A DNA stretch of 64,000 nt, taken from Blautia massiliensis (ex Durand et al. 2017). GTDB taxonomy: Bacteria > Bacillota > Clostridia > Lachnospirales > Lachnospiraceae. Within the stretch, counting starts at the first letter, position 1, and every line of letters begins with the position of its first letter. The position numbers and the translations under genes are program-made. Positions 14,524-62,140 of this stretch are shown here, piece by piece. The notes under the pieces were generated by a model. That model searched no databases and was not told the DNA's origin. It worked only from the letters and a program-made list of their open reading frames with translations. The DNA lies in assembly GCF_001487165.1 (NCBI RefSeq), contig NZ_LN913006.1, forward strand, positions 1-64,000, written 5' to 3'.

Positions 14524-14660
14524 GTATATCATAGAGAGCTGAACGATAATAAAAGAATGTTGTGATTACCAAGTAGGCAATAAAAAAGGCAATCTATACA
14601 AGAAAACTAGACTAGTATCAATGAGGACATTTATTATAAAAAGATAAGGAGGATGTATTC

Positions 14661-14843
14661 ATGGGAAGGGAACAGAATAAAAAGGGTTTAGATGAAATAA
14701 ACAGAAATCATGATGAGAAACAAAATATAACGGAGAAAGAATGGGCATTATTAGAAAAATATAGAAATCTTTGTGAGGAAAATAAATTAACAATAGATAT
14801 TTTGATTCAACGATTATTGACACATCAGAAAGGCAGGGAATAG
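14661..14843 (+). CDS. Small hypothetical protein upstream of LytTR regulator
   Basis: A 60-residue, highly charged protein preceded by AAGGAGGATGTATTC. NITEKEWALLEKYRNLCEEN leads into KLTIDILIQRLL, a largely helical peptide with no membrane segment. One base separates its stop from the TTG start of the response regulator, so the two are translated together. Function is unknown; a small modulator of the adjacent regulator is possible. Confidence 0.65.
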   Translation: MGREQNKKGLDEINRNHDEKQNITEKEWALLEKYRNLCEENKLTIDILIQRLLTHQKGRE

Positions 14844-14844
14844 G

Positions 14845-15573
14845 TTGATTAAAGTAGGATTGTGTGATGACATTACAGACTATAACAAAAAAATGGAGAA
14901 CTATATAATACGTTATGGTAATGAAAACCATATAAAGGTTAAAATTACTGCATACGGAAGTGGTTCACAATTGTTATTAAACTTTCAAAAGAGAAAGTTT
15001 GACATAATTTTTTTGGATGTTTCTATGCCGGAATTAGATGGGTTTGAAACAGCAGAACGAATTAGAAGTATAGATGAAAATGTTGTAATAGTATTTTGTA
15101 CATCCTTTTACACAATATCAAATGCAGGGAAAGGTTTTGAAGTGGATGCAGAGGATTTCTTATCAAAGCCATTATTATATAAAAAGGTAGAACACCTTTT
15201 AAATAAAGTATATAAAAAGAAATTGTTGTGTGCAGAGGAAAAATTATTTTTGAAGTGCCAAGATGGATTGATTACGCTACAGCTTTCAGATATAATCTAC
15301 ATACAGGTAAGGAACAAACTATTGATTCTGCATACGAATAAGGGAGAAATACAAAGTAGCCAAAGGATGAGGGAACTGGAGGAAAGATTAAGCCGAAAAT
15401 TATTCTTCAGATGTCATAACAGCTACATAGTAAATTTTGATTATGTAGAAGGTTTAAAGAATGATAGTGTACTCGTTAAGGATAAGAATCAACAGTTAAA
15501 AGAGATTCCGGTGAGTAAATATAAAAAAGAAGAATTTATGAAAGAATTAGCTATTTATGTAGGAAATAGATAG
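14845..15573 (+). CDS. LytTR-family response regulator 1
   Basis: A 242-residue regulator. The receiver domain (1-120) has GLCDD, the phosphoacceptor Asp in IIFLDVSMPELDG (about 56) and the Lys in FLSKPLL. The LytTR DNA-binding domain (about 135-240) shows LSDIIYIQVRNKLLILHT, RELEERLSRKLFFRCHNSYIVNF and VEGL. Start is TTG 14845. It resembles AgrA/ComE-type activators that read peptide signals. It precedes the first precursor gene, and a second LytTR regulator with a kinase lies at 17407-19465. It has no adjacent kinase of its own. Confidence 0.92.
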   Translation: MIKVGLCDDITDYNKKMENYIIRYGNENHIKVKITAYGSGSQLLLNFQKRKFDIIFLDVSMPELDGFETAERIRSIDENVVIVFCTSFYTISNAGKGFEVDAEDFLSKPLLYKKVEHLLNKVYKKKLLCAEEKLFLKCQDGLITLQLSDIIYIQVRNKLLILHTNKGEIQSSQRMRELEERLSRKLFFRCHNSYIVNFDYVEGLKNDSVLVKDKNQQLKEIPVSKYKKEEFMKELAIYVGNR

Positions 15574-15600
15574 ATTGAATATTTTATGCAAAAAAAAAGT

Positions 15601-15655
15601 CGATTTAGACATGGAATGTTGATATATAGGAAAAAGCAGAGTATAGTTTGGACAT
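15601..15655 (+). promoter_or_regulatory. Promoter-region motif before precursor 1
   Basis: CGATTTAGACAT (15601-15612) fits a motif, C-R-A-W-W-T-A-G-W-C-A, also present before precursor 2 (26818), the phospholipase gene (19531) and metK (31996). In addition TTTAGACAT (15604) and TTTGGACAT (15647) form a direct repeat 43 bp apart, each followed by TGATAT. Binding by a LytTR regulator is inferred. Confidence 0.45.
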
Positions 15656-15685: not shown

Positions 15686-15841
15686 ATGCAGGAAATTAAA
15701 ACAACAGAGGAATATCAAAAAGAAGTGGAGATAACAGAAGAAGAAATAGAAAGTTATTCCGGCTGTTCAGAAAGAACACAGAGATGTTTAACTGATTGTC
15801 CCTGGCCGTTCCCAGGATCTTATATTAATGCAGCAAGCTAA
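15686..15841 (+). CDS. RiPP precursor peptide 1 (CX6CLxDC family)
   Basis: A 51-residue peptide translated from ATG 15686 behind AAAGGAGAG. The leader is Glu-rich with ITEEEIESYS (residues 16-25). The core begins with Cys27 and has Cys34 and Cys38 in the pattern CX6CLTDC, ending PWPFPGSYINAAS. The gene at 26905 encodes the same leader motif and Cys spacing, which argues strongly that both are real. It lies directly upstream of a radical SAM/SPASM gene, with only a terminator-like hairpin between, so thioether (sactipeptide or ranthipeptide type) crosslinking of the Cys residues is inferred. No precursor family known to me matches. Confidence 0.82.
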   Translation: MQEIKTTEEYQKEVEITEEEIESYSGCSERTQRCLTDCPWPFPGSYINAAS

Positions 15842-15848
15842 ATTAGAG

Positions 15849-15896
15849 AACCGCATACCTATCTGAAAAATGGATAGGCTGTGCGGTTACTTTTTT
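15849..15896 (+). terminator. Terminator-like hairpin between precursor 1 and its maturase
   Basis: AACCGCA-x-ACCTATC pairs with GGATAGG-x-TGCGGTT around the loop TGAAAAAT, followed by ACTTTTTT (15889-15896). It sits between the precursor stop and the radical SAM ribosome site. Partial termination would give much more precursor than enzyme mRNA, a common RiPP arrangement. Confidence 0.8.
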
Positions 15897-15907
15897 GGAG
15901 GAAAGAG

Positions 15908-16966
15908 ATGTATACGATTACTTTAGAGGTAAATCAAATTTGTAATTTACGATGCGACTATTGCTATCTTGGAGAGAAAACAAATCAGATAATGCCCGAA
16001 GAAATTGCCTGTAAAGGGCTAGAAATAGCTTTTCTAAATGTAGAAAAGCATAAGGATAAAAGATTGTGGGTTGATTTTGTAGGAGGAGAAGCGTTAATTA
16101 GTTTTGCACTTTTACAGAAATTGGTCGAATATATTGAAGAGGAGGCTGCGAAACGAACAATTGCGGTTTCTTATTCTATTACCACGAATGGTACAATTAT
16201 GAATAATGAAGTTTTGGAATGGTTAGTAAATAATAGAGTTCATTTAAAATTGAGCATAGATGGAACAATGGAAACTCATGACAGAAATCGCAAAACAAAA
16301 CATGGTATAGGAAGTTATAGGAATATAATGCAGAACATAAGTTACTTTAGAGAGTACGAAGAGAGAACAAAACAATATATTCAGGTCGCTCATGTAGTTA
16401 CTCAGAATAATTACTGGGAAGCTTTTAAGTCTGTTAAACATCTAGTAGAAGATTTACATTTTAGTATCGTAGATTCTTCTATAGATGTTACACATAGGTG
16501 GACTGTTGAGCAATTAGATAAATTGGGGCAGGAATGGGAAAATATTTTATGTTATTATATAAAGAAAAAAGAGAACGGACAAGCATTTTTGTGGGCACCA
16601 ATATTGGATTTAAAAAAATATGGAGAAGAATACGTGAATTCCGGATTCTGTGGAGTGGGGTTAATCCAAATATATGTGAAAACAGATGGTGGGATTTATG
16701 GATGTGCAGCTAATTTAGAGTCTAGTGGGTGTTTAGGAGATGTGGAGAAAGGTTTCTCCGTAAGAAAAATAAAAGAATATCGGGAATTAGCAAACCAAAG
16801 TAATGCTTGTTTAAAGTGTAATATACATGCCAAATGTCAGAGCTGTAAATGTATTATGAACAATCTATCATACAGTAATCAGATAAATGGATATAATCCA
16901 GATATGTGCTATTTTGAAAAGAAAAAAATAACTTTATGGAATAAGTATGATAAAAAAATAGGATAA
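15908..16966 (+). CDS. Radical SAM/SPASM peptide maturase A
   Basis: A 352-residue enzyme starting at ATG 15908 behind TTTGGAGG. The SAM-binding cluster motif is CNLRCDYC (CX3CX2C, about 12-19), followed by VGGEAL (SAM-binding). The C-terminal SPASM region has FCGVG, GCAANLESSGCLGD, and a Cys-rich end ACLKCNIHAKCQSCKC plus a final MCYFE. SPASM enzymes of this size install crosslinks in peptides. No separate N-terminal PqqD-like recognition domain is visible. It is closely related to the enzyme at 24436 (both start MYT and share CYLGEK). Precursor 1 is the likely substrate. Confidence 0.9.
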   Translation: MYTITLEVNQICNLRCDYCYLGEKTNQIMPEEIACKGLEIAFLNVEKHKDKRLWVDFVGGEALISFALLQKLVEYIEEEAAKRTIAVSYSITTNGTIMNNEVLEWLVNNRVHLKLSIDGTMETHDRNRKTKHGIGSYRNIMQNISYFREYEERTKQYIQVAHVVTQNNYWEAFKSVKHLVEDLHFSIVDSSIDVTHRWTVEQLDKLGQEWENILCYYIKKKENGQAFLWAPILDLKKYGEEYVNSGFCGVGLIQIYVKTDGGIYGCAANLESSGCLGDVEKGFSVRKIKEYRELANQSNACLKCNIHAKCQSCKCIMNNLSYSNQINGYNPDMCYFEKKKITLWNKYDKKIG

Positions 16967-17072
16967 AATAAACTTGATAAATTAGTAAAAATGCGTTATT
17001 TTTATTATGAGACATCATAAATACTTGATATGTTGGTATTTGATTAAAATGATAGTAAAAGTGGTGATGAAA

Positions 17073-17435
17073 ATGAACATAATTAGGAAGAAACGTAAGG
17101 AATTAGGAATTTCTCAAAGCGAATTAAGCGAAAAATTGGGAACCAGTCAGCAAACAATCAGTAGGATTGAGAAGGCGGGGATTGAAAACATACCTTGTAA
17201 TCTTTTGATAAAATTGGCAGATATATTCCATGTTCCTATTGACATTCTTATTTATGAAGAACAGAATAATTTGTTTAGTTCACAGGGAGAAGAATTGTGG
17301 GAAATATATAAGCAACTCGATGAGGCAAATAAGACCACTTTGCTAACGCTTGGCAGAAGATTAAGTGAAGCACAAGTAGAAAATATGTTTAAAAGACAAA
17401 TGGGTGATGAAAGTGATAAAAATAGCGATATGTGA
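17073..17435 (+). CDS. XRE-family regulator with kinase operon
   Basis: A 120-residue protein. ATG 17073 (MNIIRKKRKELGISQSELSE) is chosen over longer in-frame starts because the HTH begins directly there. The HTH covers KLGTSQQTISRIEKAG. The C-terminal part has LWEIYKQLDEANKTTLLTLG, like the XRE protein at 31529, so the two are homologous. The 3' end overlaps the LytTR gene by 29 bp, so it is co-transcribed with the two-component genes and probably tunes this cluster. Confidence 0.85.
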   Translation: MNIIRKKRKELGISQSELSEKLGTSQQTISRIEKAGIENIPCNLLIKLADIFHVPIDILIYEEQNNLFSSQGEELWEIYKQLDEANKTTLLTLGRRLSEAQVENMFKRQMGDESDKNSDM

Positions 17436-18123
17436 TGACGAAAAATGTTTTATAGATACAATAGAAAAAATGTTAAAAGTTTATGAAAAGAAAAATGAGC
17501 AGGATTTTATAATAAAAAAATATACTAAGCCATTGCAGTTAATGGAATCTTTAAAAGAAGAATTCCAGATTTTCTTTTTAGATATAGAAATGCCAGCTAT
17601 GGATGGTATGGAATTAGTGGATATTATAAGAAAGCATGATGAAAAGTCAATTGTTCTTTTTGTGTCTTCGCATAATGAATTCCTGGGAGCTGGTTATAAG
17701 TATGACGTGCAAAATTTTATTACGAAGCCGATTACACAAGTCCAAATAAATTGTGAAATGAACCGGGCACTACGAAAACTGAATACATATGAACAGAGAT
17801 ATATTGCAGTAAAAAATGAAAAAGGTTATTTTAAACTATTTCTTTCAGATATCGAATATATTGAAACAATAAATCGGAAAGTACTGTTTCATTTAAGAAG
17901 TGGAAAGAAAGAAGCAGGATATTTTAAGATGAAAGATTTGGAAGAACGATTAGAACAGTTCTTCTTTGTTCGTTGCCATAACGGAATTATTGTCAATGTA
18001 GATTGCATAGAATCATTACATGATCTCACTGTAACACTTTATTCTGGAAACAAAATATATATTACACGTTCCAGAAAACAGAACCTTATGAAGAAAATGG
18101 CGGAACGGGGAGGAGCTGTTTAA
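17407..18123 (+). CDS. LytTR-family response regulator 2
   Basis: A 238-residue regulator. The receiver shows IAICDD, the Asp in IFFLDIEMPAMDG (about 58) and the Lys in FITKPI. The LytTR domain shows LSDIEYIETINRKVLFHL, EERLEQFFFVRCHNGIIVNV and IESL. ATG 17407 lies within the upstream XRE gene; GTG 17404 and 17413 are alternatives. It is directly followed by its histidine kinase, so this is a complete two-component pair. It is paralogous to the regulator at 14845. Confidence 0.92.
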   Translation: MKVIKIAICDDEKCFIDTIEKMLKVYEKKNEQDFIIKKYTKPLQLMESLKEEFQIFFLDIEMPAMDGMELVDIIRKHDEKSIVLFVSSHNEFLGAGYKYDVQNFITKPITQVQINCEMNRALRKLNTYEQRYIAVKNEKGYFKLFLSDIEYIETINRKVLFHLRSGKKEAGYFKMKDLEERLEQFFFVRCHNGIIVNVDCIESLHDLTVTLYSGNKIYITRSRKQNLMKKMAERGGAV

Positions 18124-18124
18124 G

Positions 18125-19465
18125 GTGCACGGACAAGTTATATTAAAAAACATATTTTCTGTACTCAATATTTTATTAATATTATATCTCATGCTCGGTG
18201 AAAGAAAAAGTAGAAGGTATAATGCTGTAAGGAGTAAGTATTCGTTAATTTTTTGCGTTGTGAGTTTAGTGCTTTTTAGAATGATGGCGAATGGAGCAGA
18301 ACTACATATTGTATATAATTATGTAAGCATTATCATTATAGTTATGATTATAGGACATTTTCTATTCCAGTATAGTATAAAATATTGTTTATTACTTGGG
18401 AGCGTTTTCTTATCAGTTATACTTTTAGGTCAACTGATTAGTTGCATTTTTTTCTATAGATATAGCAGTGATGGAATATTAGCAGATCTGTCTGAAAAAT
18501 ATCAAATCCATATGATTTTGATTGCTGAAATAGTAATTATTATTGGGAATTTAGTAATAAAAAAGATTGTAAATAAAATCCCATTATTACTTTCTGGACT
18601 GAACGTTGTTACAATTATTATTCCGTTGTTTATCAATATAGTAGTAATGGCAATATGTGCGGATCAGTTATATAACGACAAAAGGATGATTGTTGACAAT
18701 GTATGGTCAATAATAACTATTATAGCTGTGTGTATTGTGGTGTTTATGGGGACTGTTTGTAATATTGTTGTTCTTGAAAATTATTTGAATGTTAAAAAGA
18801 TTGAGAATGAAAAGAACTTGCAGATTAGCGAGATGAGCTTACAATACGATTATTATATGAAACAATCCAATGATATGGAAAACATTAGAAAGATTTCTCA
18901 TGATATTAAAAATCATTTGGAGGCATTAAGAGGGAATGTGGATTATCAACAGAAGCAAGAATACATAGATGGAATTGAAAGTAAGTTGGACATTTATCAA
19001 AGCTATTATAAAACAGGTAATGCATTTCTTGATAACCTATTACATGCAAAAAGACTGGAAGCTCTTGAAAAAAAGATTGAGTTTAAAGTATTTGCAGACT
19101 TTACACCATTTAAGCGAGTTAAAAATGAAGATCTATGTGTGATTGTCTCAAATACAATCGACAATGCACTACGAGAATGCCAACTCATGAAAGCGGATAA
19201 TCCGAAAATAGAATGTTTAGTACAGCTAAAGGCTAGAAAAATAAAAGGATTTCTATCTATTATATGTGAAAACAGTTTGAGAGAAAGCCAGGCAGAAGCT
19301 TTACGTGGAAATTTGGTAATGGAAACATCAAAGGAAGATAAAAAAAATCATGGATTTGGAGTGAAGAATATTAAGCGTGTTGTGAGAGAATATGGGGGAG
19401 AGGTATCATCTAATGTGGTGGATGATATGTTTTCAGTATCGATTCTTATTCCTATCGAAGTATAG
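18125..19465 (+). CDS. AgrC-like sensor histidine kinase
   Basis: A 446-residue membrane kinase starting at GTG 18125. About six hydrophobic spans fill residues 1-225, the topology of peptide-sensing AgrC/HPK10 kinases. The H box is ISHDIKNHLEALRG (His about 259), followed by NAFLDNLLHAK, the N box VIVSNTIDNALREC and the G box GFGVKNIKRVV of a GHKL ATPase. It is one base after the LytTR regulator. No agrB/agrD pair is seen nearby, so the signal may be a product of this island, a host peptide or a peptide supplied from elsewhere. Confidence 0.9.
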   Translation: MHGQVILKNIFSVLNILLILYLMLGERKSRRYNAVRSKYSLIFCVVSLVLFRMMANGAELHIVYNYVSIIIIVMIIGHFLFQYSIKYCLLLGSVFLSVILLGQLISCIFFYRYSSDGILADLSEKYQIHMILIAEIVIIIGNLVIKKIVNKIPLLLSGLNVVTIIIPLFINIVVMAICADQLYNDKRMIVDNVWSIITIIAVCIVVFMGTVCNIVVLENYLNVKKIENEKNLQISEMSLQYDYYMKQSNDMENIRKISHDIKNHLEALRGNVDYQQKQEYIDGIESKLDIYQSYYKTGNAFLDNLLHAKRLEALEKKIEFKVFADFTPFKRVKNEDLCVIVSNTIDNALRECQLMKADNPKIECLVQLKARKIKGFLSIICENSLRESQAEALRGNLVMETSKEDKKNHGFGVKNIKRVVREYGGEVSSNVVDDMFSVSILIPIEV

Positions 19466-19470
19466 AATAA

Positions 19471-19506
19471 TAAGTGGTATTTACGAAAGTAAGTATCACT
19501 TTTTTA
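19471..19506 (+). terminator. Terminator after kinase operon
   Basis: AGTGGTA and TATCACT form a stem around TTTACGAAAGTAAG, followed by TTTTTT. One G-T pair is present. It starts five bases after the kinase stop. Confidence 0.7.
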
Positions 19507-19530
19507 TATCCAAATACGGTAAAAAAAACG

Positions 19531-19564
19531 CAATTTAGTCAAATATTGTTTTCTTTTTTATATT
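19531..19564 (+). promoter_or_regulatory. Promoter of phospholipase-like gene with shared motif
   Basis: CAATTTAGTCAA (19531-19542) follows an A-run and matches the motif before both CX6CLxDC precursors and metK. If TAGTCA acts as the -35, TATATT (19559-19564) lies 17 bp downstream as a good -10. The gene begins 29-35 bp later. Confidence 0.5.
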
Positions 19565-19592
19565 AAGATGTAAGATAAAGAAAAAAGAAGGC

Positions 19593-20444
19593 ATGGGTAT
19601 GCGAAAAAAAATGAAACTATTTATTGCCATGGTATCAGTGGGGGCTTTATTGGGAACGATGCCAGTTATGGCAGCGGAACAGCCAGAACTTCCAACAAAA
19701 GTGCAGGATATTGCGAATGGTTCTGATGAACTTTACGGGGAAGGAGTTCCGATTGAGCATGGTACAAATCCAGATGAAAGATTTTCGTCTGGTGGTGTAG
19801 ATCATACACATCAGTATATTGTTGCAAACACACTTAAAATTCTGAGCAATGATAAGGGAAATAGTGCATTCAATGGTGAGCTTAACTCATCTATTCTTAT
19901 GGAGGCAACCGACTGGCCGGATAAACTTGGAAATGAAACAGATGCAGGAACTTTTGCAGGACACTTTTATGATCCTGATACTGGAAAAAACTGGCTTGGT
20001 CAAAAATCTCCGACAGCTAGGACAAGAGCAGAGTCATATTTTCAGGCAGCAGTCAATGCGTATCGTGCAGGGGATGTACAATTGGCTATGTCAAACTTAG
20101 GAAAAGGCACCCATTATGTATCGGACTTAAACGAACCGCATCATGCATCGAACTTGACAGCAGTAAACAGCAATCATTCCGCTTTTGAAAAATATGTTGA
20201 TAAAAACCGTAAATCTTACACAATAGCAGGAAATTCGTTTGGTTCCTCCGTATATACAACTGCATTAAATACATCAACAGGAGATTTGATGTATTCAGCA
20301 GCAAAATATGCGAAAGGGCTTGCGGCGGAGGCTCAAAAGGAAAGTTCCTATGATAGTGCAGGTAGAAAATCTGTACAGCATGCTATACAGACGGTAACTC
20401 AATATATGTATAAATTTGGTAAGGAAGTTGGAATTTATAAATAA
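19593..20444 (+). CDS. Secreted zinc-dependent phospholipase C-like protein
   Basis: A 283-residue protein. Its N terminus has MRKKMK, a hydrophobic stretch and the cleavage-like site PVMAAEQ (about 30), a clear signal peptide. The mature part shows the metal-ligand pattern of the bacterial PLC family: VDHTHQYIV, ATDWPD, GHFYDPDTG, GKGTHYVSDLNEPHHASN and NHSAFEKYV. The N-terminal Trp ligand typical of classic PLCs is not evident after the predicted cleavage site, so activity is uncertain. There is no C-terminal C2-like domain, unlike C. perfringens alpha toxin. It may be lytic or membrane-active. Its promoter motif links it to the peptide island. Confidence 0.78.
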   Translation: MGMRKKMKLFIAMVSVGALLGTMPVMAAEQPELPTKVQDIANGSDELYGEGVPIEHGTNPDERFSSGGVDHTHQYIVANTLKILSNDKGNSAFNGELNSSILMEATDWPDKLGNETDAGTFAGHFYDPDTGKNWLGQKSPTARTRAESYFQAAVNAYRAGDVQLAMSNLGKGTHYVSDLNEPHHASNLTAVNSNHSAFEKYVDKNRKSYTIAGNSFGSSVYTTALNTSTGDLMYSAAKYAKGLAAEAQKESSYDSAGRKSVQHAIQTVTQYMYKFGKEVGIYK

Positions 20445-20448
20445 TGTT

Positions 20449-20491
20449 AAAAAGATCTTGGTATTGAGAAATCAAATGCCAGGATCTTTTT
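20449..20491 (+). terminator. Terminator after phospholipase-like gene
   Basis: AAAAAGATCTTGG pairs with CCAGGATCTTTTT around a short loop, four bases past the stop codon. The symmetric A and T runs suggest it works in both directions. Confidence 0.85.
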
Positions 20492-20590
20492 AGAGTAAGC
20501 ACTGAAATATATAAAATAAGCAAATTATATGGATAAATGCGAAAAGTTGGTTACAATTATTTTTAAAATACAAGCAAAGGAGAAATATTA

Positions 20591-21754
20591 ATGTTTAGTT
20601 TTACGCTTTATATAACGACAGATTGTAACTTAAAATGCCAATATTGCTATGAGGACTATCATAACCACTATCAGTTGAATGAAAAAACACTTGTGGATTC
20701 TTTGGAGTTTATTATGAATTATGGGGATAGAGGGAAAGTTTTGATTGATTTTTTAGGCGGTGAGCCTTTGCTGAAGAAAAACTTAATTTACCAAGCAGTA
20801 TCCTATATCAAAAATAATTATCCGGAAAGGGAAGTAAAGTATTATATTACTACCAATTGTTCCCTAATGGATGATCAGTTCATTGCATTTATGAAAGAAT
20901 ATCATTTTACAGTACGCCTCAGCTTTGATGGGAATAAAGAAACCCATGATTTAAACAGAATTGCAAAAGATGGAGTTTCTTGCTATGGCAAAATTTTTGA
21001 GAATATCATGAAGGTAAAGGATAGTGGATTGAATTTTTCTGTAAGAATGACAGTCACAGAAAATACCATTCCGTTTATGTTCGAAAATATCCGTTACTTG
21101 CATGAGCATAATCTGGATAACATCTGTATGATTATGGATGTATATTTAAAAATATCTGATGAGCTGAAGGTAAAATTTGAAAAGCAGGTGGGACAAATTT
21201 TGCAGTACTATTTGAATGAGGCTGCAGCGGGCAGAGTTTTTACCATTGATCAATTTGATGGAAAAATGTTTAATATGCTGTGTGATTTTGGGAACTGCTT
21301 TGGCATGTGCGATGCTGGAATTGGAAACTTTAAGGTATTTCCGAATGGTCAGATATACCCATGCGGATTTCTTACAAGTAATGAAAAATATTGTATAGGA
21401 AATATCAAGGAAGGTATCGACATAAGAAGGGCAAAATTAATAGCAATATCTAATTTTGATAAAAACGATCCGAAATGTAAGGGATGCACAATCCGAGATT
21501 TTTGTCATGGTATGAAATGTGGGTATATGAATTTTGTCAATACAGGGAAGATTAATGTACCATCGGATGCAGAGTGCATCTTTGAACATATCTTTTATAA
21601 GGCAATGGTACAAATTCTTGAATATTATTTACAGCAGCCGATTGAAATAGTTAGAGAAAAATTAGGCATGTATATAGACTATATCCAGAAGGAAAATTTA
21701 AAATTCAGTGAGTTTGGTGAGAAGATTGCCCAGAGGTTAAGCAATGAAAAGTAA
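20591..21754 (+). CDS. Radical SAM/SPASM enzyme B
   Basis: A 387-residue enzyme behind AAAGGAG. The cluster motif is CNLKCQYC (about 12-19), followed by FLGGEPL. The C-terminal half has CFGMCDAGIG, PCGFLTSNEKYCIG, then CKGCTIRDFCHGMKCG and AECIFE, a SPASM-type auxiliary cluster region. The C terminus extends about 40 residues as a helix. It opens an operon with an ABC exporter, a subtilisin-like protease and two more radical SAM genes. No precursor lies immediately upstream, so its substrate may be one of the two CX6CLxDC peptides. Its 3' end overlaps the ABC gene by 11 bp. Confidence 0.9.
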   Translation: MFSFTLYITTDCNLKCQYCYEDYHNHYQLNEKTLVDSLEFIMNYGDRGKVLIDFLGGEPLLKKNLIYQAVSYIKNNYPEREVKYYITTNCSLMDDQFIAFMKEYHFTVRLSFDGNKETHDLNRIAKDGVSCYGKIFENIMKVKDSGLNFSVRMTVTENTIPFMFENIRYLHEHNLDNICMIMDVYLKISDELKVKFEKQVGQILQYYLNEAAAGRVFTIDQFDGKMFNMLCDFGNCFGMCDAGIGNFKVFPNGQIYPCGFLTSNEKYCIGNIKEGIDIRRAKLIAISNFDKNDPKCKGCTIRDFCHGMKCGYMNFVNTGKINVPSDAECIFEHIFYKAMVQILEYYLQQPIEIVREKLGMYIDYIQKENLKFSEFGEKIAQRLSNEK

Positions 21755-23426
21755 AAAAAAACGCCCATATCTTGGATTTTTAAAAGAGTATGCTTTTAAG
21801 AAAAAGCTACTACCTTATTACATTTTAACGATAGCGATAATTGTGTTAACAGCTGGGGTTTCTTTGGTGCGTCCAGAGCTGCAGGGAAAAGTGATAGATG
21901 ATTTGGGAAATCCGCATGGTACCAGTTTATCTGCATTTATGCTTCTTCTGGCGGTGTTCCTGGGAATGTTACTTCTAAACTACCTTATGAATTATGTACA
22001 GCGTTATGTTGTGGCTGTCATATCGGAAGAGATAGCAGCAGATATGCGACAAAAGGTAGAAGATAAATTATCAACAGTAAGCGTAAATTTTTTTGAGAAG
22101 ATAAAGCTAAGTGACATTTTGCTAAAAGTGGATAAAGATGTTTCAGCAGTGAAACAATGTGGAATCACAAGCATTATTACACTGATTTCTAACATTGTTA
22201 TCCTGGTAGTGGTTCCTCCGTATATGTTTTCTATCCATAAGGGAATTGCCGTATCTAATATTATCTTACTTGTCATCGTTCCTTTTATCAGCAGAATTCT
22301 AGGAAAATTGATACAGGAAACCAGTAGTCAAGTTCTGGAAGGATACAATAGTATCACCAGTGTGCTGACAAATACCTATGATAATTGGTTTATTACAAGA
22401 CTCTTTCAATGTGGGCAATATGTGCATGATAGGTACTTTGAGAAAAACCAGAAATATAAAAAAGAGACGAATCGCCAGAATTTATTGTACATATTGAATA
22501 CATCTACGATACTTGTAATTCAGTTTATTGGAACAGTCATAATTTGGGTAGTAGGTGCACAAGAAGTATTTAAAGGGAATATGACCATAGGTACCATTAT
22601 GGCATTGATGAATTACCAGACAATTATTATGAATCCTATTATTGGAATTGCACAATTTGCTAACGAGTACCATACAGCCGTAGTTTCCTTAAAGGATATC
22701 AATGGTCTGCTTCAGTATCCGGATCAGAAACAAGGAGACAGAAAGAAAATAACAACAGTTAACAACATTTCCTTAGAAGCGATGAGTTTTTCTTATCCAG
22801 AGTCAAATAAGAAGGTATTTGACCGCCTCAATTTGAATTTTGAAAAAGGCACTCTTTACGGTGTTCATGGGAAAAGTGGACAGGGTAAAAGCACTTTGTT
22901 CAAAATTATAACAGGTGTGTATCAGCCGACAGAGGGAAAAGTAGTTGTAAATAACACAGATTTACAGGAATTAGATATTAACAGCTATTGGGAAAATACA
23001 GGATATGTTATGCAGCGTACACAGTTCTTCAATGATACAGTAAGACGGAACATGGGATTACTACATACTGTTTCGGAGGAAGAAATGGATATGGTGGCAA
23101 AGTGCTTGGATTTGTATGATGAAATGCATACTTTAGAAATGGTATGGGATACCGAGATAAAGATAGATCCATGCAATTTCTCAGAGGGACAAATGCGACG
23201 TTTGGATATTATGAGGAATATTTTGAAAAATTCACAAATTCTGATTTTTGACGAAGCGACAGCAAATATTGATGAAAAGCGAAGAGGGCGTTTTTATCAA
23301 TTATTGCATGAATTATCAAGGGAGAAAATTATTATTTTTTCTACGCATAATCTGGAAGAATTGCGAGAAGCGGATATTATCGTGGATTTGGAAAAGATGC
23401 ATATAAGGCAGGTGAGTGAAAAGTGA
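21744..23426 (+). CDS. ABC exporter A (TM-ATPase fusion)
   Basis: A 560-residue half-transporter. About six membrane spans lie in residues 20-300. The ATPase has Walker A GKSGQGKSTL, a Q loop near YVMQRTQ, the variant signature FSEGQMRR in place of LSGGQ, Walker B ILIFDEATANID and the switch STHNLEEL. There is no N-terminal C39 peptidase domain, so the leader must be removed by another protease, probably the subtilisin-like protein that starts within this gene's stop codon (GTGA overlap). It is the likely export route for precursor 1 and 2 products. Confidence 0.9.
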   Translation: MKSKKKRPYLGFLKEYAFKKKLLPYYILTIAIIVLTAGVSLVRPELQGKVIDDLGNPHGTSLSAFMLLLAVFLGMLLLNYLMNYVQRYVVAVISEEIAADMRQKVEDKLSTVSVNFFEKIKLSDILLKVDKDVSAVKQCGITSIITLISNIVILVVVPPYMFSIHKGIAVSNIILLVIVPFISRILGKLIQETSSQVLEGYNSITSVLTNTYDNWFITRLFQCGQYVHDRYFEKNQKYKKETNRQNLLYILNTSTILVIQFIGTVIIWVVGAQEVFKGNMTIGTIMALMNYQTIIMNPIIGIAQFANEYHTAVVSLKDINGLLQYPDQKQGDRKKITTVNNISLEAMSFSYPESNKKVFDRLNLNFEKGTLYGVHGKSGQGKSTLFKIITGVYQPTEGKVVVNNTDLQELDINSYWENTGYVMQRTQFFNDTVRRNMGLLHTVSEEEMDMVAKCLDLYDEMHTLEMVWDTEIKIDPCNFSEGQMRRLDIMRNILKNSQILIFDEATANIDEKRRGRFYQLLHELSREKIIIFSTHNLEELREADIIVDLEKMHIRQVSEK

Positions 23427-24424
23427 GGATAGGTGTGTTGGATTCCAATGGATCTTTTGATAATCCTTTTTTTCTGGATAAGAAAATTGTAAAAATAGAC
23501 TGCAAGTGGAATGGTCAGGAATACAGTAAAGATACCTTTGGATTTACCCATGCGGAATATGTCTGTTCTTTTATTTTAAAGGAAAACCCGGAAGCGGAAA
23601 TTGTTCTGGTACCCATTGTGAGGAAGAACAAAAAGAGTACGGTTCTGGATATGATAGAAGGTATTGAATTACTGATAGAGGAACAGGTAGATATAATTAA
23701 TATGAGTATGGGAGATGAGTACAAGTATCACAAAGAAATCGAGGAAGTGTGTAGGGCAGCTATAGAAAAGGGGATTTTGATTGTGGCTGCATATTCCAAT
23801 CAGAAAGCAGAAGCAACCTATCCAGCTTCATTCCCCTTTGTAATGGGAGTAAGATGCCTGGATATGGAAAAACCGGTACAAGTGCTTCAATATGATGAAA
23901 AGAAAAATGATGTAATTTTTTCTTGTGGGCTTTTCTTTTTATATCACTTAGGAATACCGGTTCTACATCCAGGAAATAGCCTTGCCTGTGCTGTGGTAAC
24001 AGGCTATTTGAGTAACTATGAGAAACAGTATCAACAGGCAATTTTACAGTTTACTCTCAACACTTTGAATCACTATTATCCATATCAAACATTGAAGCAG
24101 AAACAATGTTATTTTCTAACGAACCGTATAGAAGAACCTTTAGAGCAGCGTTTCATACGGGAAGTTACGAGAACAGAGAGATGTGATACTTTTGAAAGTG
24201 GAATGGAAAAATTGAGAAATAAAAAAACAGCAGAGCAGTATCCGGTGCTATTTATTGATCACAACAATTATCAGGAAATATGTGAGTATAAAGAGAGAAT
24301 CAGGATATATGCCATGGAACATCCGAAGACAGAAATTGTTTTGCGATATCCCTTATTTAATATGGTGGAAAGATTGGATTTCCAGAAGAAAACAAATAGA
24401 AATTTGAACCAATTTACAGTTTAG
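23423..24424 (+). CDS. Cytosolic subtilisin-like (S8) peptidase
   Basis: A compact 333-residue protein without a signal peptide or propeptide. The S8 triad can be traced: Asp in IGVLDSNGS (about 6), His in FTHAEYVCSF (about 39), the oxyanion Asn in AAYSNQKA with the following YPASFPFVMGV, and Ser in HPGNSLACAVVTG, a variant of GTSMA. Residues beyond ~215 are unlike subtilisin and may bind the leader. Sitting between an exporter lacking a peptidase and a radical SAM gene, it is the best candidate for leader removal. Start is GTG 23423, coupled to the ABC gene. Confidence 0.78.
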   Translation: MRIGVLDSNGSFDNPFFLDKKIVKIDCKWNGQEYSKDTFGFTHAEYVCSFILKENPEAEIVLVPIVRKNKKSTVLDMIEGIELLIEEQVDIINMSMGDEYKYHKEIEEVCRAAIEKGILIVAAYSNQKAEATYPASFPFVMGVRCLDMEKPVQVLQYDEKKNDVIFSCGLFFLYHLGIPVLHPGNSLACAVVTGYLSNYEKQYQQAILQFTLNTLNHYYPYQTLKQKQCYFLTNRIEEPLEQRFIREVTRTERCDTFESGMEKLRNKKTAEQYPVLFIDHNNYQEICEYKERIRIYAMEHPKTEIVLRYPLFNMVERLDFQKKTNRNLNQFTV

Positions 24425-24435
24425 GAGGCAGGAAA

Positions 24436-25542
24436 ATGTATACATTGTCATTAGAGATTATAAATAAGTGCAATTTGAATTGTACTTACTGCTACCTGGG
24501 CGAGAAGAAAAATACATACATGAGTTTAGAAACGGCTCAAAAGGTAATCGATATTGCTGTGCATGAAGCAAATAAGCAGCATGATCGGACACTTATGGTT
24601 TACTTTATTGGAGGGGAACCTCTTATGGCATTTAATCTGATAAAAGATGCTGTAGATTATACGAAGAAAAAATGCCAGGAAACAAACTTAATATGCAAGT
24701 TCAGTACTACGATAAATGGAACGTTAGTTACAGATGAGATAATTGATTTTTTTGTGGAAAATACATTTGAGGTGAAGGTGAGTTTAGATGGTCCTGAGTA
24801 TGTTCAGAATTTGAACAGGAGAGACTATGCAGGAAATGGAAGTTTTGAAAAAATCATGAAGAATCTTCCGTTATTGAGAAAATATGAGCAGGAAACAGGA
24901 AATCAGATTTCGGTAGCCAGTGTTGTGACAAGTAATAACTATCAATATTATGCAGAAAGTTTCCAGTTTTTGCTTGATTTAGGAATTAAAAAATTAGAAT
25001 CAGGAATTGATTATTATTGCTCCTGGAGTGATGAGCAGATACAGGGATTACGAGAGCAGATAGAGAAAGTATTTGGCTTATATAAAGCATATATACAAAA
25101 AAATCAAGAAGTAATCTTCTGGAATCTCTGGGAACAATATCTGAAATCATTCCTGATTCCATGTCCATTTTATGCATGTAAGGCGGGTTTGACAACTTGC
25201 TATGTAACAACGGATGGTGGGATTTATACTTGTGCGGAACTTCCAGAATTTAAAATCGGTTCTGTAGAAGTCGGGTTGGATGTTCCGAGGATTCGAGAGA
25301 TTATTTACCTAGAGGATCAAGAGGATACAATGTGTAAAGAATGTCAATATATTAGACATTGTAAAACAAGAGGCTGTCAGGTGGCAAATTATGAAATTCA
25401 CCAAAATGTATATCAACCTATAAAAGTGAATTGTGAAATGACGAAGTGGATGTATCATCTGATTCAAACAAACTTAACTGAAAAACAGCTTGAAAAGCTG
25501 AAACAAGAATATGAAAGGAGATATTTACGTCATGGAAAGTAA
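24436..25542 (+). CDS. Radical SAM/SPASM peptide maturase C
   Basis: A 368-residue enzyme preceded by GGAGG. It has cluster motif CNLNCTYC (about 11-18), FIGGEPL and a SPASM region with CPFYACKAG, TCYVTTDGGIYTCAE, then MCKECQYIRHCKTRGC and VNCEMT. The N terminus (MYT..LE, then CYLGEK) closely resembles maturase A at 15908, so the pair likely arose by duplication, perhaps one for each of the two related precursors. Its 3' end overlaps the next radical SAM gene by 11 bp. Confidence 0.9.
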   Translation: MYTLSLEIINKCNLNCTYCYLGEKKNTYMSLETAQKVIDIAVHEANKQHDRTLMVYFIGGEPLMAFNLIKDAVDYTKKKCQETNLICKFSTTINGTLVTDEIIDFFVENTFEVKVSLDGPEYVQNLNRRDYAGNGSFEKIMKNLPLLRKYEQETGNQISVASVVTSNNYQYYAESFQFLLDLGIKKLESGIDYYCSWSDEQIQGLREQIEKVFGLYKAYIQKNQEVIFWNLWEQYLKSFLIPCPFYACKAGLTTCYVTTDGGIYTCAELPEFKIGSVEVGLDVPRIREIIYLEDQEDTMCKECQYIRHCKTRGCQVANYEIHQNVYQPIKVNCEMTKWMYHLIQTNLTEKQLEKLKQEYERRYLRHGK

Positions 25543-26791
25543 GATGAATGAGTTTATTAAGATAACTGAGGGAGAAAAAGTGGCTTTAATTGATCCGGTA
25601 GGAAAAGTCTGCCTGGGGGTAAGTAAAAGATTTGCAGACAATTTAGATAAACCAGAGTTTCAGGAAAAGTTATTCCCTGTATGGAAGCAGCAAACTGAAT
25701 TTATAAAGGAAATAGAAAATAATCATGAGAAAATCAATACGGTATATTTGATGGTAACCAGGAAATGTAATATGAATTGTGATTTTTGTGCGATCAGTGC
25801 AAACGACAAGCTTCGTCCAGAAAAAGAATTTAAGCTGGAGGATATACAGAATAAGGTGATTCCGTTCTTTCAGAAAAATAAACCACATAAAATGATTCTT
25901 ACAGGTGGAGAGCCACTGATTAAAGATCAAATTGTGGAAATTGCAAAAGCATTAAGAAATGGTTTGACTTGCCCCATAACACTGCAGAGCAATGGTCTTG
26001 CAATCACCAAAGAATTAACAGAACAACTCAAAGGATATATAGACGAAATTGATTTCAGTACCATGCACATGTTTGGAACGCCTGAAAAGGAGCAGCAGCT
26101 AATTAATCATATCGAGATGTGTCAGCAAGCTGGAATAAAGGTGGTTCTTAGCTTTATTTATGAGAAAACTAATGAAGTGGATTTGTATCGATTGATTGAT
26201 ATAGCTGCTAAATATGACATTAATGTTCTTTTTAATATTGTTTCATCCGTGGGTAGGGCGAAAGAAAACTCTAAAATTTTATCAGATATGGAACATCTTG
26301 ATATGAACCTGAAGATAGCAAAATATATATTGAAACAGGGATACGAGAATAAAAAAATAGGAGAAGCCTTTTACCAAAGGATTCAGGTAAGAAATTCTTG
26401 TGGGGGTTATGGAAAAGTTATGGCAATTTTCCCGGAAGGCGATATTTATATGTGTCAGTGTATGGAAAAGAATCAGGTTCGAATGGGCAATATACTTACA
26501 GATAGTTCTGAAAAGATTTTGAAAACTCAAGACTGTTTGCTGAAGGAAGATGAAATAAAGCAGTTATTTTGTGTGGACTATAAAGAAATATGTAAGGAAT
26601 GCGATTATCGTTATATATGTGGTGGGAAATGTATGGCTTCGGAAGGAGAATATGACCGTAAATGTATTTTTGCAAAAGCAATGTTTAAATATGTGCTATT
26701 TTATTACAAACAGCAGGATAAAAATAGAGAAAAACTTGAAAATTATGTTCAATATCTTGAAAAAATAAAGAAATGTATGGGAGAAAGATAG
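25532..26791 (+). CDS. Radical SAM/SPASM enzyme D with N-terminal recognition-like domain
   Basis: A 419-residue enzyme. ATG 25532 follows AAAGGAG. Residues 1-75 (EKVALIDPVGKVCLGVSKRF and onwards) precede the radical SAM core and are of a size to hold a PqqD-like peptide-recognition domain. Then come CNMNCDFC (about 83-90), LTGGEPL, and a C-terminal SPASM region: SCGGYGKV, YMCQCME, ICKECDYRYICGGKC and RKCIF. It differs from maturases A and C in ending the cluster motif CDFCA rather than CYC-Y. It is directly followed by precursor 2, its most likely substrate. Confidence 0.9.
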   Translation: MESKMNEFIKITEGEKVALIDPVGKVCLGVSKRFADNLDKPEFQEKLFPVWKQQTEFIKEIENNHEKINTVYLMVTRKCNMNCDFCAISANDKLRPEKEFKLEDIQNKVIPFFQKNKPHKMILTGGEPLIKDQIVEIAKALRNGLTCPITLQSNGLAITKELTEQLKGYIDEIDFSTMHMFGTPEKEQQLINHIEMCQQAGIKVVLSFIYEKTNEVDLYRLIDIAAKYDINVLFNIVSSVGRAKENSKILSDMEHLDMNLKIAKYILKQGYENKKIGEAFYQRIQVRNSCGGYGKVMAIFPEGDIYMCQCMEKNQVRMGNILTDSSEKILKTQDCLLKEDEIKQLFCVDYKEICKECDYRYICGGKCMASEGEYDRKCIFAKAMFKYVLFYYKQQDKNREKLENYVQYLEKIKKCMGER

Positions 26792-26817
26792 TGAATCCAT
26801 GTAGGAAGAAAAAAATG

Positions 26818-26829
26818 CAAAATAGACAT
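26818..26829 (+). promoter_or_regulatory. Shared motif before precursor 2
   Basis: CAAAATAGACAT after an A-run, 76 bp before the precursor start. It matches the motif at 15601, 19531 and 31996 (C-R-A-W-W-T-A-G-W-C-A). No confident -10 could be placed here. Confidence 0.4.
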
Positions 26830-26904
26830 AAGTTGTAGTCGTTAAATTAGAAAAGGGATATATTTAAAATTGTTTTACATACGGAAAATTAAGGAGGTAA
26901 TAGT

Positions 26905-27030
26905 ATGAATGAAAAGTTGGAACTGACAGAGGAAGAAGTTAATGTGTACAGTGATGATTGCGGAAAAATACAGGTAGATTGTTTAAATGATTGTATTGAT
27001 GGAAGTGCATGGCTAAGTATCGAATCTTAA
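26905..27030 (+). CDS. RiPP precursor peptide 2 (CX6CLxDC family)
   Basis: A 41-residue peptide behind a perfect AAGGAGG. The leader is ELTEEEVNVYS (residues 6-16), matching ITEEEIESYS of precursor 1. Core Cys19, Cys26 and Cys30 have exactly the precursor 1 spacing (CX6CLNDC), ending DGSAWLSIES. The parts outside these motifs have diverged, as expected for selection on the leader-recognition and crosslink sites. It lies between radical SAM enzyme D and a different class of radical SAM gene at 27139. No terminator-like hairpin follows. Confidence 0.82.
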   Translation: MNEKLELTEEEVNVYSDDCGKIQVDCLNDCIDGSAWLSIES

Positions 27031-28446: not shown

Positions 28447-28463
28447 AACTGGGGGTAATATAT

Positions 28464-28721
28464 ATGGAAGCTTGCACTAAAGGAACAGTAATTTCAACTA
28501 ATAGATTATGGTGGTTGAAAATTAATAAAAAACCTATTCGAACACATTTATTAGATGGAGCTGATTTTCCAACGGTTATTACTGTGCAATATAGTGTTTC
28601 TGGTGTTAATTATAAAAAAAGAAAATTTATTGGAGTAGGTACTAGTTGCCCAAAAGAGGGGGAAGAACTATCAGTATTCTATCTTATGGATAATCCTAAA
28701 AAAGCAAGAATAAAATTGTGA
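28464..28721 (+). CDS. Small hypothetical protein of RiPP cluster 2
   Basis: An 85-residue protein between the maturase and the exporter. It is mostly beta-like with no membrane span: VITVQYSVSGVNYKKRKFIG, then CPKEGEELSVFYLMDNPKKAR. The ending resembles the conserved extracytoplasmic part of DUF3592-like proteins, but the membrane helices are absent, so the link is weak. A GGGGTAATA ribosome site precedes it. It could be an immunity or binding protein. Confidence 0.65.
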   Translation: MEACTKGTVISTNRLWWLKINKKPIRTHLLDGADFPTVITVQYSVSGVNYKKRKFIGVGTSCPKEGEELSVFYLMDNPKKARIKL

Positions 28722-28743
28722 TTAGTAATCTGAGGGAGAAGTT

Positions 28744-30390: not shown

Positions 30391-30506
30391 TATAAGTTAT
30401 GAAAGTTAAAACGGTATATTAAAGGTTGGCATATGTTATTACATATTGTGACTAATATATTATTTACATAACGAAGAGCATACTTATTCAAGAAAGGAGA
30501 AATGCT

Positions 30507-31952: not shown

Positions 31953-31995
31953 TTTTTATTATAAATTGGAAGTGCCAATCAGGCAAAGAAAATGT

Positions 31996-32007
31996 CAATA
32001 TAGACAA
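31996..32007 (+). promoter_or_regulatory. Shared motif before metK
   Basis: CAATATAGACAA preceded by an A-rich run, 76 bp before the metK start. It matches C-R-A-W-W-T-A-G-W-C-A seen before precursors 1 and 2 and the phospholipase gene. It lies downstream of the terminator at 31922, so metK should have its own promoter here. Confidence 0.45.
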
Positions 32008-62052: not shown

Positions 62053-62087
62053 GAAAATGTGCTCAGCAATATGCTGGGCACATTTTC
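62053..62087 (+). terminator. Terminator-like hairpin between precursor and maturase
   Basis: GAAAATGTGC-tc-AGCA pairs with TGCT-gg-GCACATTTTC around ATA. It would end most transcripts after the precursor gene and let some continue into the radical SAM gene. Confidence 0.75.
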
Positions 62088-62140
62088 ATTATTGCAAAGA
62101 ACACTGTGAAAACAAGAGATTAAGAAAAGAGGATATAATA

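What the first reader, a model, noticed from the sequence alone, without database searches (positions are those of the whole stretch)
15686..27030. Two related tiny precursors share CX6CLxDC and define a possibly undescribed RiPP system
Seen directly: the genes at 15686 (51 aa) and 26905 (41 aa), 11 kb apart, encode the same leader motif (I/L-TEEE-I/V-x-x-YS) and identical Cys spacing (C-X6-C-L-x-D-C), while other positions differ. Each has a strong ribosome site and lies beside radical SAM/SPASM genes. Between them are four such enzymes, an ABC exporter without a C39 domain, a cytosolic S8-type protease and a two-component system. Known families: SPASM enzymes make thioether or C-C crosslinks in Cys-containing peptides. 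Inferred: a two-peptide product, perhaps an antimicrobial pair, with two enzyme pairs duplicated along with the precursors. I know of no named class with this Cys pattern.
Basis: partly seen in the sequence, partly recalled or inferred. Interest (0 to 1): 0.92.

Follow-up and report, generated by a model that had tools for sequence, protein, structure and literature searches.

The report
New crosslinked peptide system in Blautia
Gut bacteria of the genus Blautia and relatives carry a so far unnamed family of tiny peptide genes that travel with radical enzymes likely to stitch the peptides into rings, and the peptides appear to be switched on together with the enzyme that makes those radical enzymes' fuel.

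Summary
The genes at 15686 (p1) and 26905 (p2) belong to a family of 28 distinct precursors in 11 loci, nearly all Lachnospiraceae. No Pfam or NCBIfam model matches p1 or p2. The recurring unit is an S8 protease resembling QhpE with intact triad, a PapB-like radical SAM enzyme (rs3), a distinct one (rs4) and one to six p2 genes, mostly with rs2, an ABC exporter without C39 domain and, in relatives, an FtsX-type ABC pair. New here: a LytTR-type direct-repeat operator lies before RR1, p1, p2 and a second metK (SAM synthetase); similar sites precede two further radical SAM loci of this genome. The neighbouring CefB/CefA is a separate, known system. An obligate two-peptide product is unlikely: three loci have p2 without p1. 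Best reading: a LytTR-controlled RiPP system working like PapB or QhpD/E/F, with variable p2 effectors and a conserved p1 that may be the inducer. Crosslinks, cleavage, activity and signalling are untested.

The parts
14571..14600 (+). LytTR-type direct-repeat operator before the 60-aa ORF and RR1
   Evidence: 28.3 bits with a matrix built from relatives only, none of them an RR1 site
14661..14843 (+). 60-aa ORF between operator and RR1, function unknown
   Evidence: 53% over 34 aa in G359
14845..15573 (+). RR1, LytTR response regulator
   Evidence: Response_reg + LytTR; orthologue directly before p1 in B. schinkii (78%); LytTR regulator directly before p1 in G359; LytTR-like fragment before p1 in G305, by inspection
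15582..15611 (+). operator of p1
   Evidence: 30.1 bits; 21-bp repeat period also before p1 in L051 and L135, degenerate in L052, where the register was set by hand
15686..15841 (+). p1 precursor peptide, 51 aa
   Evidence: p1-type homologues in L052, L051, L135 and L174
15908..16966 (+). rs1, PapB-like radical SAM enzyme without N-terminal extension
   Evidence: NF047865 190.9 bits, below cut-off 340; sister to rs3
17070..17435 (+). small HTH regulator
   Evidence: RstR model 40.5 bits, below cut-off 80; conserved in place
17404..18123 (+). RR2, LytTR response regulator
   Evidence: Response_reg + LytTR; AgrA model 47.3 bits, cut-off 400
18125..19465 (+). sensor kinase: 7 hydrophobic segments, then GHKL domain (AgrC-like build, recalled)
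   Evidence: PF14501; hydropathy scan
19512..19541 (+). weak candidate operator before the phospholipase-family gene
   Evidence: 10.8 bits, within the noise; top 1.5% of windows; B. schinkii counterpart 12.8 bits
19593..20444 (+). secreted zinc-dependent phospholipase C family protein
   Evidence: PF00882 52.7 bits; N-terminal hydrophobic segment; homologues in 6 other loci
20591..21754 (+). rs2, PapB-like radical SAM/SPASM enzyme
   Evidence: NF047865 205.9 bits, below cut-off 340
21744..23426 (+). ABC exporter, no C39 peptidase domain found
23423..24424 (+). cytosolic S8 protease resembling QhpE
   Evidence: NF049966 98.2 bits, below cut-off 165; D7, H43, S186 invariant in 7 aligned sequences
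24436..25542 (+). rs3, PapB-like radical SAM enzyme
   Evidence: NF047865 198.8 bits, below cut-off 340; residues 4-337 align to 99-439 of PDB 5wgg (name CteB recalled)
25532..26791 (+). rs4, radical SAM/SPASM enzyme of another lineage with an N-terminal extension of about 65 aa
26799..26828 (+). operator of p2
   Evidence: 22.2 bits
26905..27030 (+). p2 precursor peptide, 41 aa
   Evidence: p2-type homologues in 8 further loci
31977..32006 (+). operator of the second metK
   Evidence: 24.5 bits; corresponding site before metK in L058 and G359, identical to each other and one of the 14 training sites
32083..33273 (+). second metK (S-adenosylmethionine synthetase)
   Evidence: the genome has another metK, 79% identical, at G000:C4:2691246-2692430; 97% relative in G359, 96% in G301

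Best explanation
p1 and p2 are leader-core precursors of a radical-SAM-modified RiPP family. Inferred maturation: rs2, rs3 and rs4 (rs1 added for p1) put crosslinks into the C-x6-C-x-x-D-C core, most likely thioethers from cysteines to carbon atoms of the invariant Asp or neighbouring residues, as PapB and QhpD do. The cytosolic S8 protease then cuts near the E-[VI]-x-x-Y leader block and the ABC protein exports the product, the same order of steps as QhpD, QhpE, QhpF. RR1 and/or RR2 with the membrane kinase activate RR1, p1, p2 and a second SAM synthetase through one direct-repeat operator, so precursors and radical-SAM fuel rise together. The variable, amplified p2 peptides are probably the competitive (antimicrobial) products, with the FtsX-type ABC pair of relatives as self-protection or export. 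The near-invariant p1 core is more likely an inducer or stand-alone peptide than one half of a strict pair. Shown: genes, family, gene order, operator sequence. Inferred: chemistry, cleavage, activity, who binds the operator, p1's role.
For: Family of 28 precursors, its core pattern absent from background ORFs, under purifying selection. The S8-rs3-rs4-p2 unit recurs in the same order in 9 loci: window, B. schinkii (across contigs L174 and L053), L054, L055, L057, L058, G359 twice, G407. rs1-3 score best with PapB (191-206 bits) and also with the QHNDH maturase model (118-148 bits); S8 scores best with QhpE. PapB links Cys to the Asp beta-carbon in CX3D and accepts n = 0-6 (PMC9413430, passages). 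QhpD, QhpE and QhpF do crosslinking, cytosolic leader cleavage and export (PMC7876137, passages). Operator: a matrix from 14 sites of relatives gives four window sites of 22-30 bits, before p1, RR1, metK and p2; the next is 14.8 and the best of 20 Markov simulations 16.1. The 21-bp period equals 9-bp repeats plus a 12-bp spacer, as reported for LytTR regulators (PMC6193735, PMC2766830, passages). metK is a second copy.
Against: No mass, expression or activity data. rs1-3 miss the PapB cut-off (340) and S8 the QhpE cut-off (165) by wide margins, so the chemistry is by analogy. Here the Asp is at C-x2-D and next to the third Cys, not C-x3-D. The window has no FtsX-type ABC pair next to p2. No evidence links p1 to the kinase. 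The 14 matrix sites were collected with a first matrix that held the window's p1 site, and relatives share ancestry, so only the RR1 site is a clean independent test. In one search only 15 of 34 upstream regions reach the top 5% of windows; sites are weak or missing before L053 p2a (12.8 bits), and before the p2 genes of L057 and G407. G301 has the cluster-type metK although no precursor was found in it (its metK starts 177 bases from a contig end).
Confidence: 0.6

Rival explanations
1. p1 and p2 are the two obligate halves of a two-peptide antimicrobial, like thuricin CD.
For: Two related precursors in one cluster with paralogous enzymes rs1/rs3 and the same operator.
Against: L057, G407 and the second G359 locus L046 show p2-type precursors and no p1. 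p2 copy number varies from one to six per locus while p1 is single and nearly invariant.
Confidence: 0.15
2. p1 is a radical-SAM-modified pheromone: exported, sensed by the kinase at 18125, and feeding back on RR1, p1, p2 and metK.
For: p1 sits next to RR1 and RR2/kinase in the window, B. schinkii and G359, and next to RR2/kinase in L052, which is cut just before p1. The three p2-only loci show no RR2/kinase. RR1 carries the operator itself. The kinase's sensor half is less conserved than its catalytic half, 58 against 76% to B. hansenii, 41 against 55-56% to G359 and L058. The build resembles the gallocin circuit of secreted peptide, kinase and two LytTR proteins on a 30-bp operator (PMC8545106, passages).
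Against: Few loci. The p2-only loci are not all intact: L057's 5' side is bounded by a transposase-like gene and L046 has one between rs4 and p2 (by inspection), so loss of a p1 module cannot be excluded. p1's core hardly varies while the sensor does, unlike classical pherotypes (recalled).
Confidence: 0.3
3. The peptides are not secreted antimicrobials but structural or redox parts of a protein, as the gamma subunit of quinohemoprotein amine dehydrogenase is.
For: Genes resembling QhpD and QhpE and an ABC exporter together.
Against: No dehydrogenase subunit or monooxygenase gene was recognised in the cluster, by inspection only. The peptides are 39-54 aa, amplified and variable, and adjoin an ABC pair with kinase and regulator in some relatives.
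Confidence: 0.08
4. The invariant E-x3-Y is the reaction site, joined by rs4 as PqqE joins Glu and Tyr of PqqA, and the cysteines serve something else.
For: E-[VI]-x-x-Y in 27 of 27 precursors, the same spacing as in PqqA (recalled).
Against: The block also fits a double-glycine-type leader, L-x3-E-[LIV]-x2-hydrophobic (recalled), and a leader signal explains its invariance more simply. PqqE is not among the 25 of 65 NCBIfam matches shown for rs4.
Confidence: 0.05
5. The two small ORFs are spurious.
For: None found.
Against: Conserved family, ribosome sites, purifying selection, operators.
Confidence: 0.01

Closest known systems
PapA/PapB ranthipeptide system (freyrasin)
   Same: Best family of rs1, rs2 and rs3; short peptide with Cys and Asp; Cys-to-Asp chemistry plausible.
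   Different: 191-206 bits against a cut-off of 340; C-x6-C-x-x-D-C with mostly three Cys instead of six CX3D motifs; several radical SAM enzymes, a protease and an operator-linked metK.
QhpD/QhpE/QhpF of quinohemoprotein amine dehydrogenase
   Same: Radical SAM maturase, cytosolic subtilisin-like leader protease and ABC exporter; the S8 protein scores best with QhpE.
   Different: QhpE 98 of 165 bits, QHNDH maturase model 118-148 of 453 bits for rs1-3; substrates are 39-54 aa instead of an enzyme subunit; no subunit or monooxygenase gene recognised here; the S8 protein has about 120 aa more at its C-terminus than the QhpE match covers.
CefA/CefB (Cys-every-fifth RiPP)
   Same: A set lies immediately downstream in the window, 27139-30767.
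   Different: p1 and p2 do not match CefA, rs1-3 score 81-95 of 600 bits with CefB, no operator site before cefA and a borderline one before cefB.
Thuricin CD, a two-component sactibiotic
   Same: Two precursors and two radical SAM enzymes (title and start of abstract of PMC12093266, listing).
   Different: p2-only loci exist and p2 copy number varies.
Gallocin, Sil and plantaricin type LytTR quorum-sensing bacteriocin regulons
   Same: Membrane kinase, LytTR regulators, conserved operator upstream of precursor and regulator genes (PMC8545106, PMC2766830, passages).
   Different: The products there are bacteriocins made without radical SAM enzymes (recalled; plantaricin wholly recalled); here the regulon also takes in a SAM synthetase.

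Membership tests
PapB-type ranthipeptide | Maturase reaches the PapB model cut-off | tested here: not met
   rs1 190.9, rs2 205.9, rs3 198.8 against 340 bits
PapB-type ranthipeptide | Cys-to-non-alpha-carbon thioether | not testable with these tools
   needs mass spectrometry or NMR
SCIFF | Six Cys in about forty-five residues and matching maturase model | tested here: not met
   23 of 27 precursors have three Cys, one has four, three have five; SCIFF maturase model 114-137 of 425 bits for rs1-3
CefA/CefB | Precursor and maturase reach the models' cut-offs | tested here: not met
   p1, p2: no match at E <= 1; rs1-3: 81-95 of 600 bits; rs4: CefB not among the 25 of 65 matches shown. Met by 27139 and 30507, a separate system
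QHNDH maturation (QhpDE) | Protease reaches the QhpE cut-off | tested here: not met
   98.2 of 165 bits
QHNDH maturation (QhpDE) | Dehydrogenase subunit genes beside it | tested here: inconclusive
   none recognised among the ORFs, by inspection, without a model search of every ORF
Subtilase S8 | Family model and Asp/His/Ser triad | tested here: met
   PF00082 40.1 bits, gathering 21.8; D7, H43, S186 invariant in 7; assignment of these residues as the triad by inspection
Radical SAM/SPASM | Radical SAM domain and SPASM domain | tested here: met
   PF04055 above gathering for all four; Pfam SPASM above gathering for rs2 and rs4 only; rs1 and rs3 through full-length PapB-model alignments
RiPP in general | Short ribosomal precursor with conserved leader, modifying enzyme, protease and exporter in one cluster | tested here: met
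   the modification itself was not tested
LytTR-controlled regulon | 9-bp direct repeats about 12 bp apart upstream of target promoters | tested here: met
   sites with 21-bp period; the repeat letters differ from the reported LytTR consensus, and protein binding is not testable here
Two-peptide bacteriocin | Both peptides always present | tested here: not met
   p2 without p1 seen in L057, L046, G407
RRE-dependent maturase | PqqD-like domain in the cluster | tested here: inconclusive
   no Pfam match in the rs4 N-terminus of the window and four relatives, one irrelevant weak match in G407; hhalign to three other maturase N-termini 2%

The most novel reading that the evidence does not exclude
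p1 is itself a radical-SAM-crosslinked quorum-sensing pheromone, made by the machinery it induces. Through an AgrC-like kinase and two LytTR regulators it switches on RR1, the p2 effectors, a dedicated SAM synthetase and further radical SAM peptide clusters elsewhere in the genome, so that one RiPP signal sets a whole radical-SAM peptide programme, carried in exchangeable cargo slots of conjugative elements.
Probability: 0.25. Interest if true: 0.85.

Novelty: new variant of a known kind. Interest (0 to 1): 0.63.

Why it matters
It gives a searchable signature (E-[VI]-x-x-Y ... C-x6-C-x-x-D-C beside S8, rs3 and rs4) for a gut-bacterial RiPP family that the two curated libraries used here do not name, with several enzymes and up to six natural substrates per cluster for studying how radical SAM maturases divide their work. 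The shared operator makes the expression question testable at once, and a SAM synthetase under a RiPP operator is a concrete, checkable case of cofactor supply being wired to peptide production.

Tried and rejected
Obligate two-peptide antimicrobial: weakened by p2-only loci. CefB as maturase of p2: rejected, it scores as CefB and has its own precursor CefA. S8 as anchor for relatives: the first search returned mostly other subtilases (57 of 299 genomes at E <= 0.001, the best outside the own genome 5.9e-15); rs4 and the precursor profile were more specific. rs4 in the genus matched 52 of 64 genomes at E <= 0.001, but only G312 and G359 at E below 1e-50; the rest were taken as other radical SAM proteins. 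The G113 and G139 loci, with 30% and 27% rs4 matches, gave no family precursor in the Cys-pattern listing or the HMM scan and were set aside. Schaedlerella L056 has ABC, S8 and rs4 but no rs2, rs3 or precursor was found; it is not among the 9 core loci. One search found 136 relatives and kept 80: 7 match at 52-88% over at least 405 residues; the other 73, at 20-38%, were taken as other radical SAM proteins, and the HMM scan of their small ORFs gave no hit at E <= 1; the 56 not kept were not seen. Weak precursor matches (three genomes, three, E 0.001 to 0.008) were not followed up. RRE in rs4: inconclusive. A first operator pattern had one letter too many and hit one place only, C4:83035, with a 22-bp period. 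The corrected pattern, drawn from the window's own sites and so partly circular, hit 9 places at up to 3 mismatches, 4 of them in the cluster, and 5 at up to 2, 4 in the cluster, against 4 hits for the backward control. The hit at C4:130949 lies inside an ABC gene and was taken as chance; three far hits were not looked at. The matrix itself was run on the window and on chosen loci only, not on the whole genome. Upstream scan: 15 of 34 regions reach the top 5% of windows, 19 do not, among them L053 p2a and p2d, L054 p2a and p2d, L058 p2c and metK, L046 p2, L057 p2a and both G407 p2 genes. Searches for PlnC/PlnD papers found none; the plantaricin comparison is recalled. Not searched: viral contigs, the plasmid, phage and E. 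coli collections, PHROGs, PADLOC, Rfam. No whole paper was read: PMC9413430, PMC7876137, PMC10885120, PMC8326336, PMC8545106, PMC6193735 and PMC2766830 were seen as passages, PMC12093266 only as a listing entry.


Full report
Observation. The pattern C-x6-C-[LMVF]-x-D-C is in 2 of 571 window ORFs of at least 30 aa and in 0 of 10,875 ORFs from 1.29 Mb of fetched loci outside the family. Neither peptide matches a Pfam or NCBIfam model at E <= 1.

Surroundings. Order on the + strand: operator, 60-aa ORF, RR1, operator, p1, rs1, small HTH gene, RR2, kinase, phospholipase-family gene, rs2, ABC exporter, S8 protease, rs3, rs4, operator, p2; then CefB (27139), a second ABC protein (28744) and CefA (30507); then an HTH-like gene (31505), operator, metK (32083). 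rs1, rs2 and rs3 match the PapB model best (190.9, 205.9, 198.8 bits; cut-off 340); rs4 has no strong family (best 67.1 of 625); S8 matches QhpE best (98.2; cut-off 165); 27139 and 30507 exceed the CefB and CefA cut-offs. The exporter shows ABC membrane and ATPase domains and no C39 domain.

Family. Searching rs4 in 64 genomes of the genus gave two genomes with strong relatives, G312 (77%) and G359 (50% and 32% in two places). The window's genus is therefore taken to be Blautia, by inference. A precursor HMM then found peptides in six of these seven loci and in G359 and G305, in G407 and on a second B. schinkii contig: 28 distinct ones with the two of the window. They lie in 11 loci: window (2), L052 (1), B. 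schinkii (5), L054 (6), L055 (2), L057 (2), L058 (3), G359 first locus (3), G359 second locus (1), G407 (2), G305 (1). Several of these are cut by contig or locus ends (L052 after rs4, L054 before rs2, L055 on both sides, L058 before rs1), so copy numbers are lower bounds. Counts on 27 of the 28 (the B. schinkii p1 came later): C-x-x-D-C 27, E-[VI]-x-x-Y 27, C-x6-C-x-x-D-C 26, C-x6-C-L-x-D-C 14, TEEE 3, exactly three Cys 23. Distribution is narrow: 4 of 64 genus genomes at E <= 0.01; 5 of 397 family genomes, of which only the own genome and G407 are strong; 4 of 391 class genomes, only the own strong.

Two kinds of precursor. p1 (window, L052, B. schinkii, G359, G305) has a near-constant core, CSxRTQxCLTDCPWPF. 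In G305 the p1 gene follows a LytTR-like fragment and is followed by a transposase-like gene (by inspection). p2 occurs one to six times per locus and varies. The genes keep one order wherever they are present. Six of the nine core loci (B. schinkii, G359 first, L054, L057, L058, G407) carry an ATPase of about 220 aa and an FtsX-type permease of about 800 aa next to p2; G359's second locus shows the permease; L055 ends before that place and the window has the Cef genes there. Models were run for the proteins of L044 and L046 only: ATPase best LolD, 228.8 of 307.75 bits; permeases LolCE, 53.5 and 47.7 of 362 bits, FtsX domain in both, MacB_PCD in L046. The comparison with Bce-type peptide resistance systems is recalled. 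The tree puts rs1 with rs3 (100/99) and G359's extra p1-side enzyme with rs2 (98/95, long branch).

Selection and mosaicism. In 7 of 7 precursor pairs pN is below pS. Window against B. hansenii gives dS about 0.1 for the phospholipase-family and rs3 genes, about 0.3 for rs2, ABC, S8 and rs4, 1.5 for RR2, 3.6 for rs1 and saturation for the kinase: the cluster is a mosaic.

Operator. Alignment of four p1 upstream regions showed a conserved stretch. It is a direct repeat of period 21 bp, WTTTAWRCA twice with 12 bp between, in three of the four; in L052 the best pair had another period and the register was set by hand. With a matrix of the four p1 sites, 15 of 34 upstream regions tested reach the top 5% of windows. 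With a matrix of 14 sites from relatives and none from the window, the window's top four on both strands are p1 30.1, RR1 28.3, metK 24.5 and p2 22.2 bits, 60-76 bp before the start of the next ORF; the fifth is 14.8, the best of 20 first-order Markov simulations 16.1, and the reversed matrix reaches 13.1 in the window and 14.5 in the loci tried. The 14 sites were collected with the first matrix, which held the window p1 site, and p1, p2 and metK regions have homologues among them; RR1 has none, so it is the cleanest test. In B. schinkii L174 the top four sites are before RR1 (19.4), p1 (19.4, equal to a training site), rs2 (15.1) and the phospholipase-family gene (12.8); reversed control 10.6. 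The IUPAC pattern, drawn from the window sites, hits 5 places in the 3.7-Mb genome at up to 2 mismatches, 4 of them these. Two further radical SAM loci of the genome carry sites of 25.5 and 28.0 bits: before a radical SAM gene at C4:83177 and before an ABC-radical SAM set at C4:113636. [quoted passage not shown] passages). RR1 and/or RR2 are thus the likely binders; which one is unknown.

metK. The gene at 32083 is a second copy; the other copy of this genome is 79% identical. Relatives of 97% and 96% occur in G359 and G301; L058 ends inside a metK gene with a site 76 bp upstream. Operator and SAM demand suggest dedicated supply. Against this: second metK copies also occur in genomes without the family, and G301 has the cluster-type copy without a precursor found.

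Mechanism. PapB joins Cys sulphur to the beta-carbon of Asp in CX3D and accepts n = 0-6 (PMC9413430, passages). QhpD makes three Cys-to-Asp/Glu thioethers; QhpE, a single-turnover subtilisin-like protease, removes the leader in the cytoplasm; QhpF exports (PMC7876137, passages). The cluster has corresponding parts. I therefore think thioethers to the invariant Asp most likely (about one in two), leader removal by the S8 protein likely and export by the ABC protein likely. The ABC pair with kinase and regulator in relatives points to an antimicrobial p2 (about 0.55). p1 as inducer is open (0.3).

Known or new. None of seven searches of the paper library listed a paper that looks to describe this family, judged by titles and abstract starts; one search listed 25 of 112. 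Subscription papers, such as the 2022 radical SAM RiPP atlas cited in PMC10885120, were not seen, so the cluster could be listed there. I rate it a new variant of a known kind: a new precursor family and gene set within radical SAM RiPPs, with an unusual regulon.

Noticed in passing
window 27139-30767: A CefB/ABC/CefA set (Cys-every-fifth RiPP), both models above cut-off, between p2 and metK; no operator site before cefA, borderline before cefB.
   Followed up: partly
L170 19033-19809 and L171 1-7602 (G000:C4:83033-91602): A radical SAM gene preceded by a 25.5-bit operator site and split by three tyrosine-recombinase-like genes; a Cys-rich 78-aa ORF, an M16-like peptidase gene and an ABC gene follow (by inspection). 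Pieces were only described.
   Followed up: partly
L172 2014-5720 (G000:C4:113513-117219): ABC protein, 289-aa protein and radical SAM gene behind a 28.0-bit operator site.
   Followed up: partly
L046 5933-18381 against L170 14829-18707 and L171 8280-8561: The second G359 cluster and the split radical SAM locus of the window's genome lie between what look like the same conjugation genes and the same short flanking ORF, as if one cargo slot held different radical SAM peptide clusters.
   Followed up: no
window 19593-20444: Secreted zinc-dependent phospholipase C family protein, present in 7 loci with the window, G407 included; role in the system unknown.
   Followed up: partly
window 62057-63391: Another radical SAM/SPASM-like gene with an ABC pair upstream; no operator site before it among the top 16 and no precursor looked for.
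   Followed up: no
L056 5935-11266: Schaedlerella copy looks degraded: reverse-transcriptase-like gene beside ABC, S8 and rs4; rs2, rs3 and precursors not found.
   Followed up: partly
window 14661-14843: 60-aa ORF between the operator and RR1 with a relative in G359; no family search was made.
   Followed up: partly
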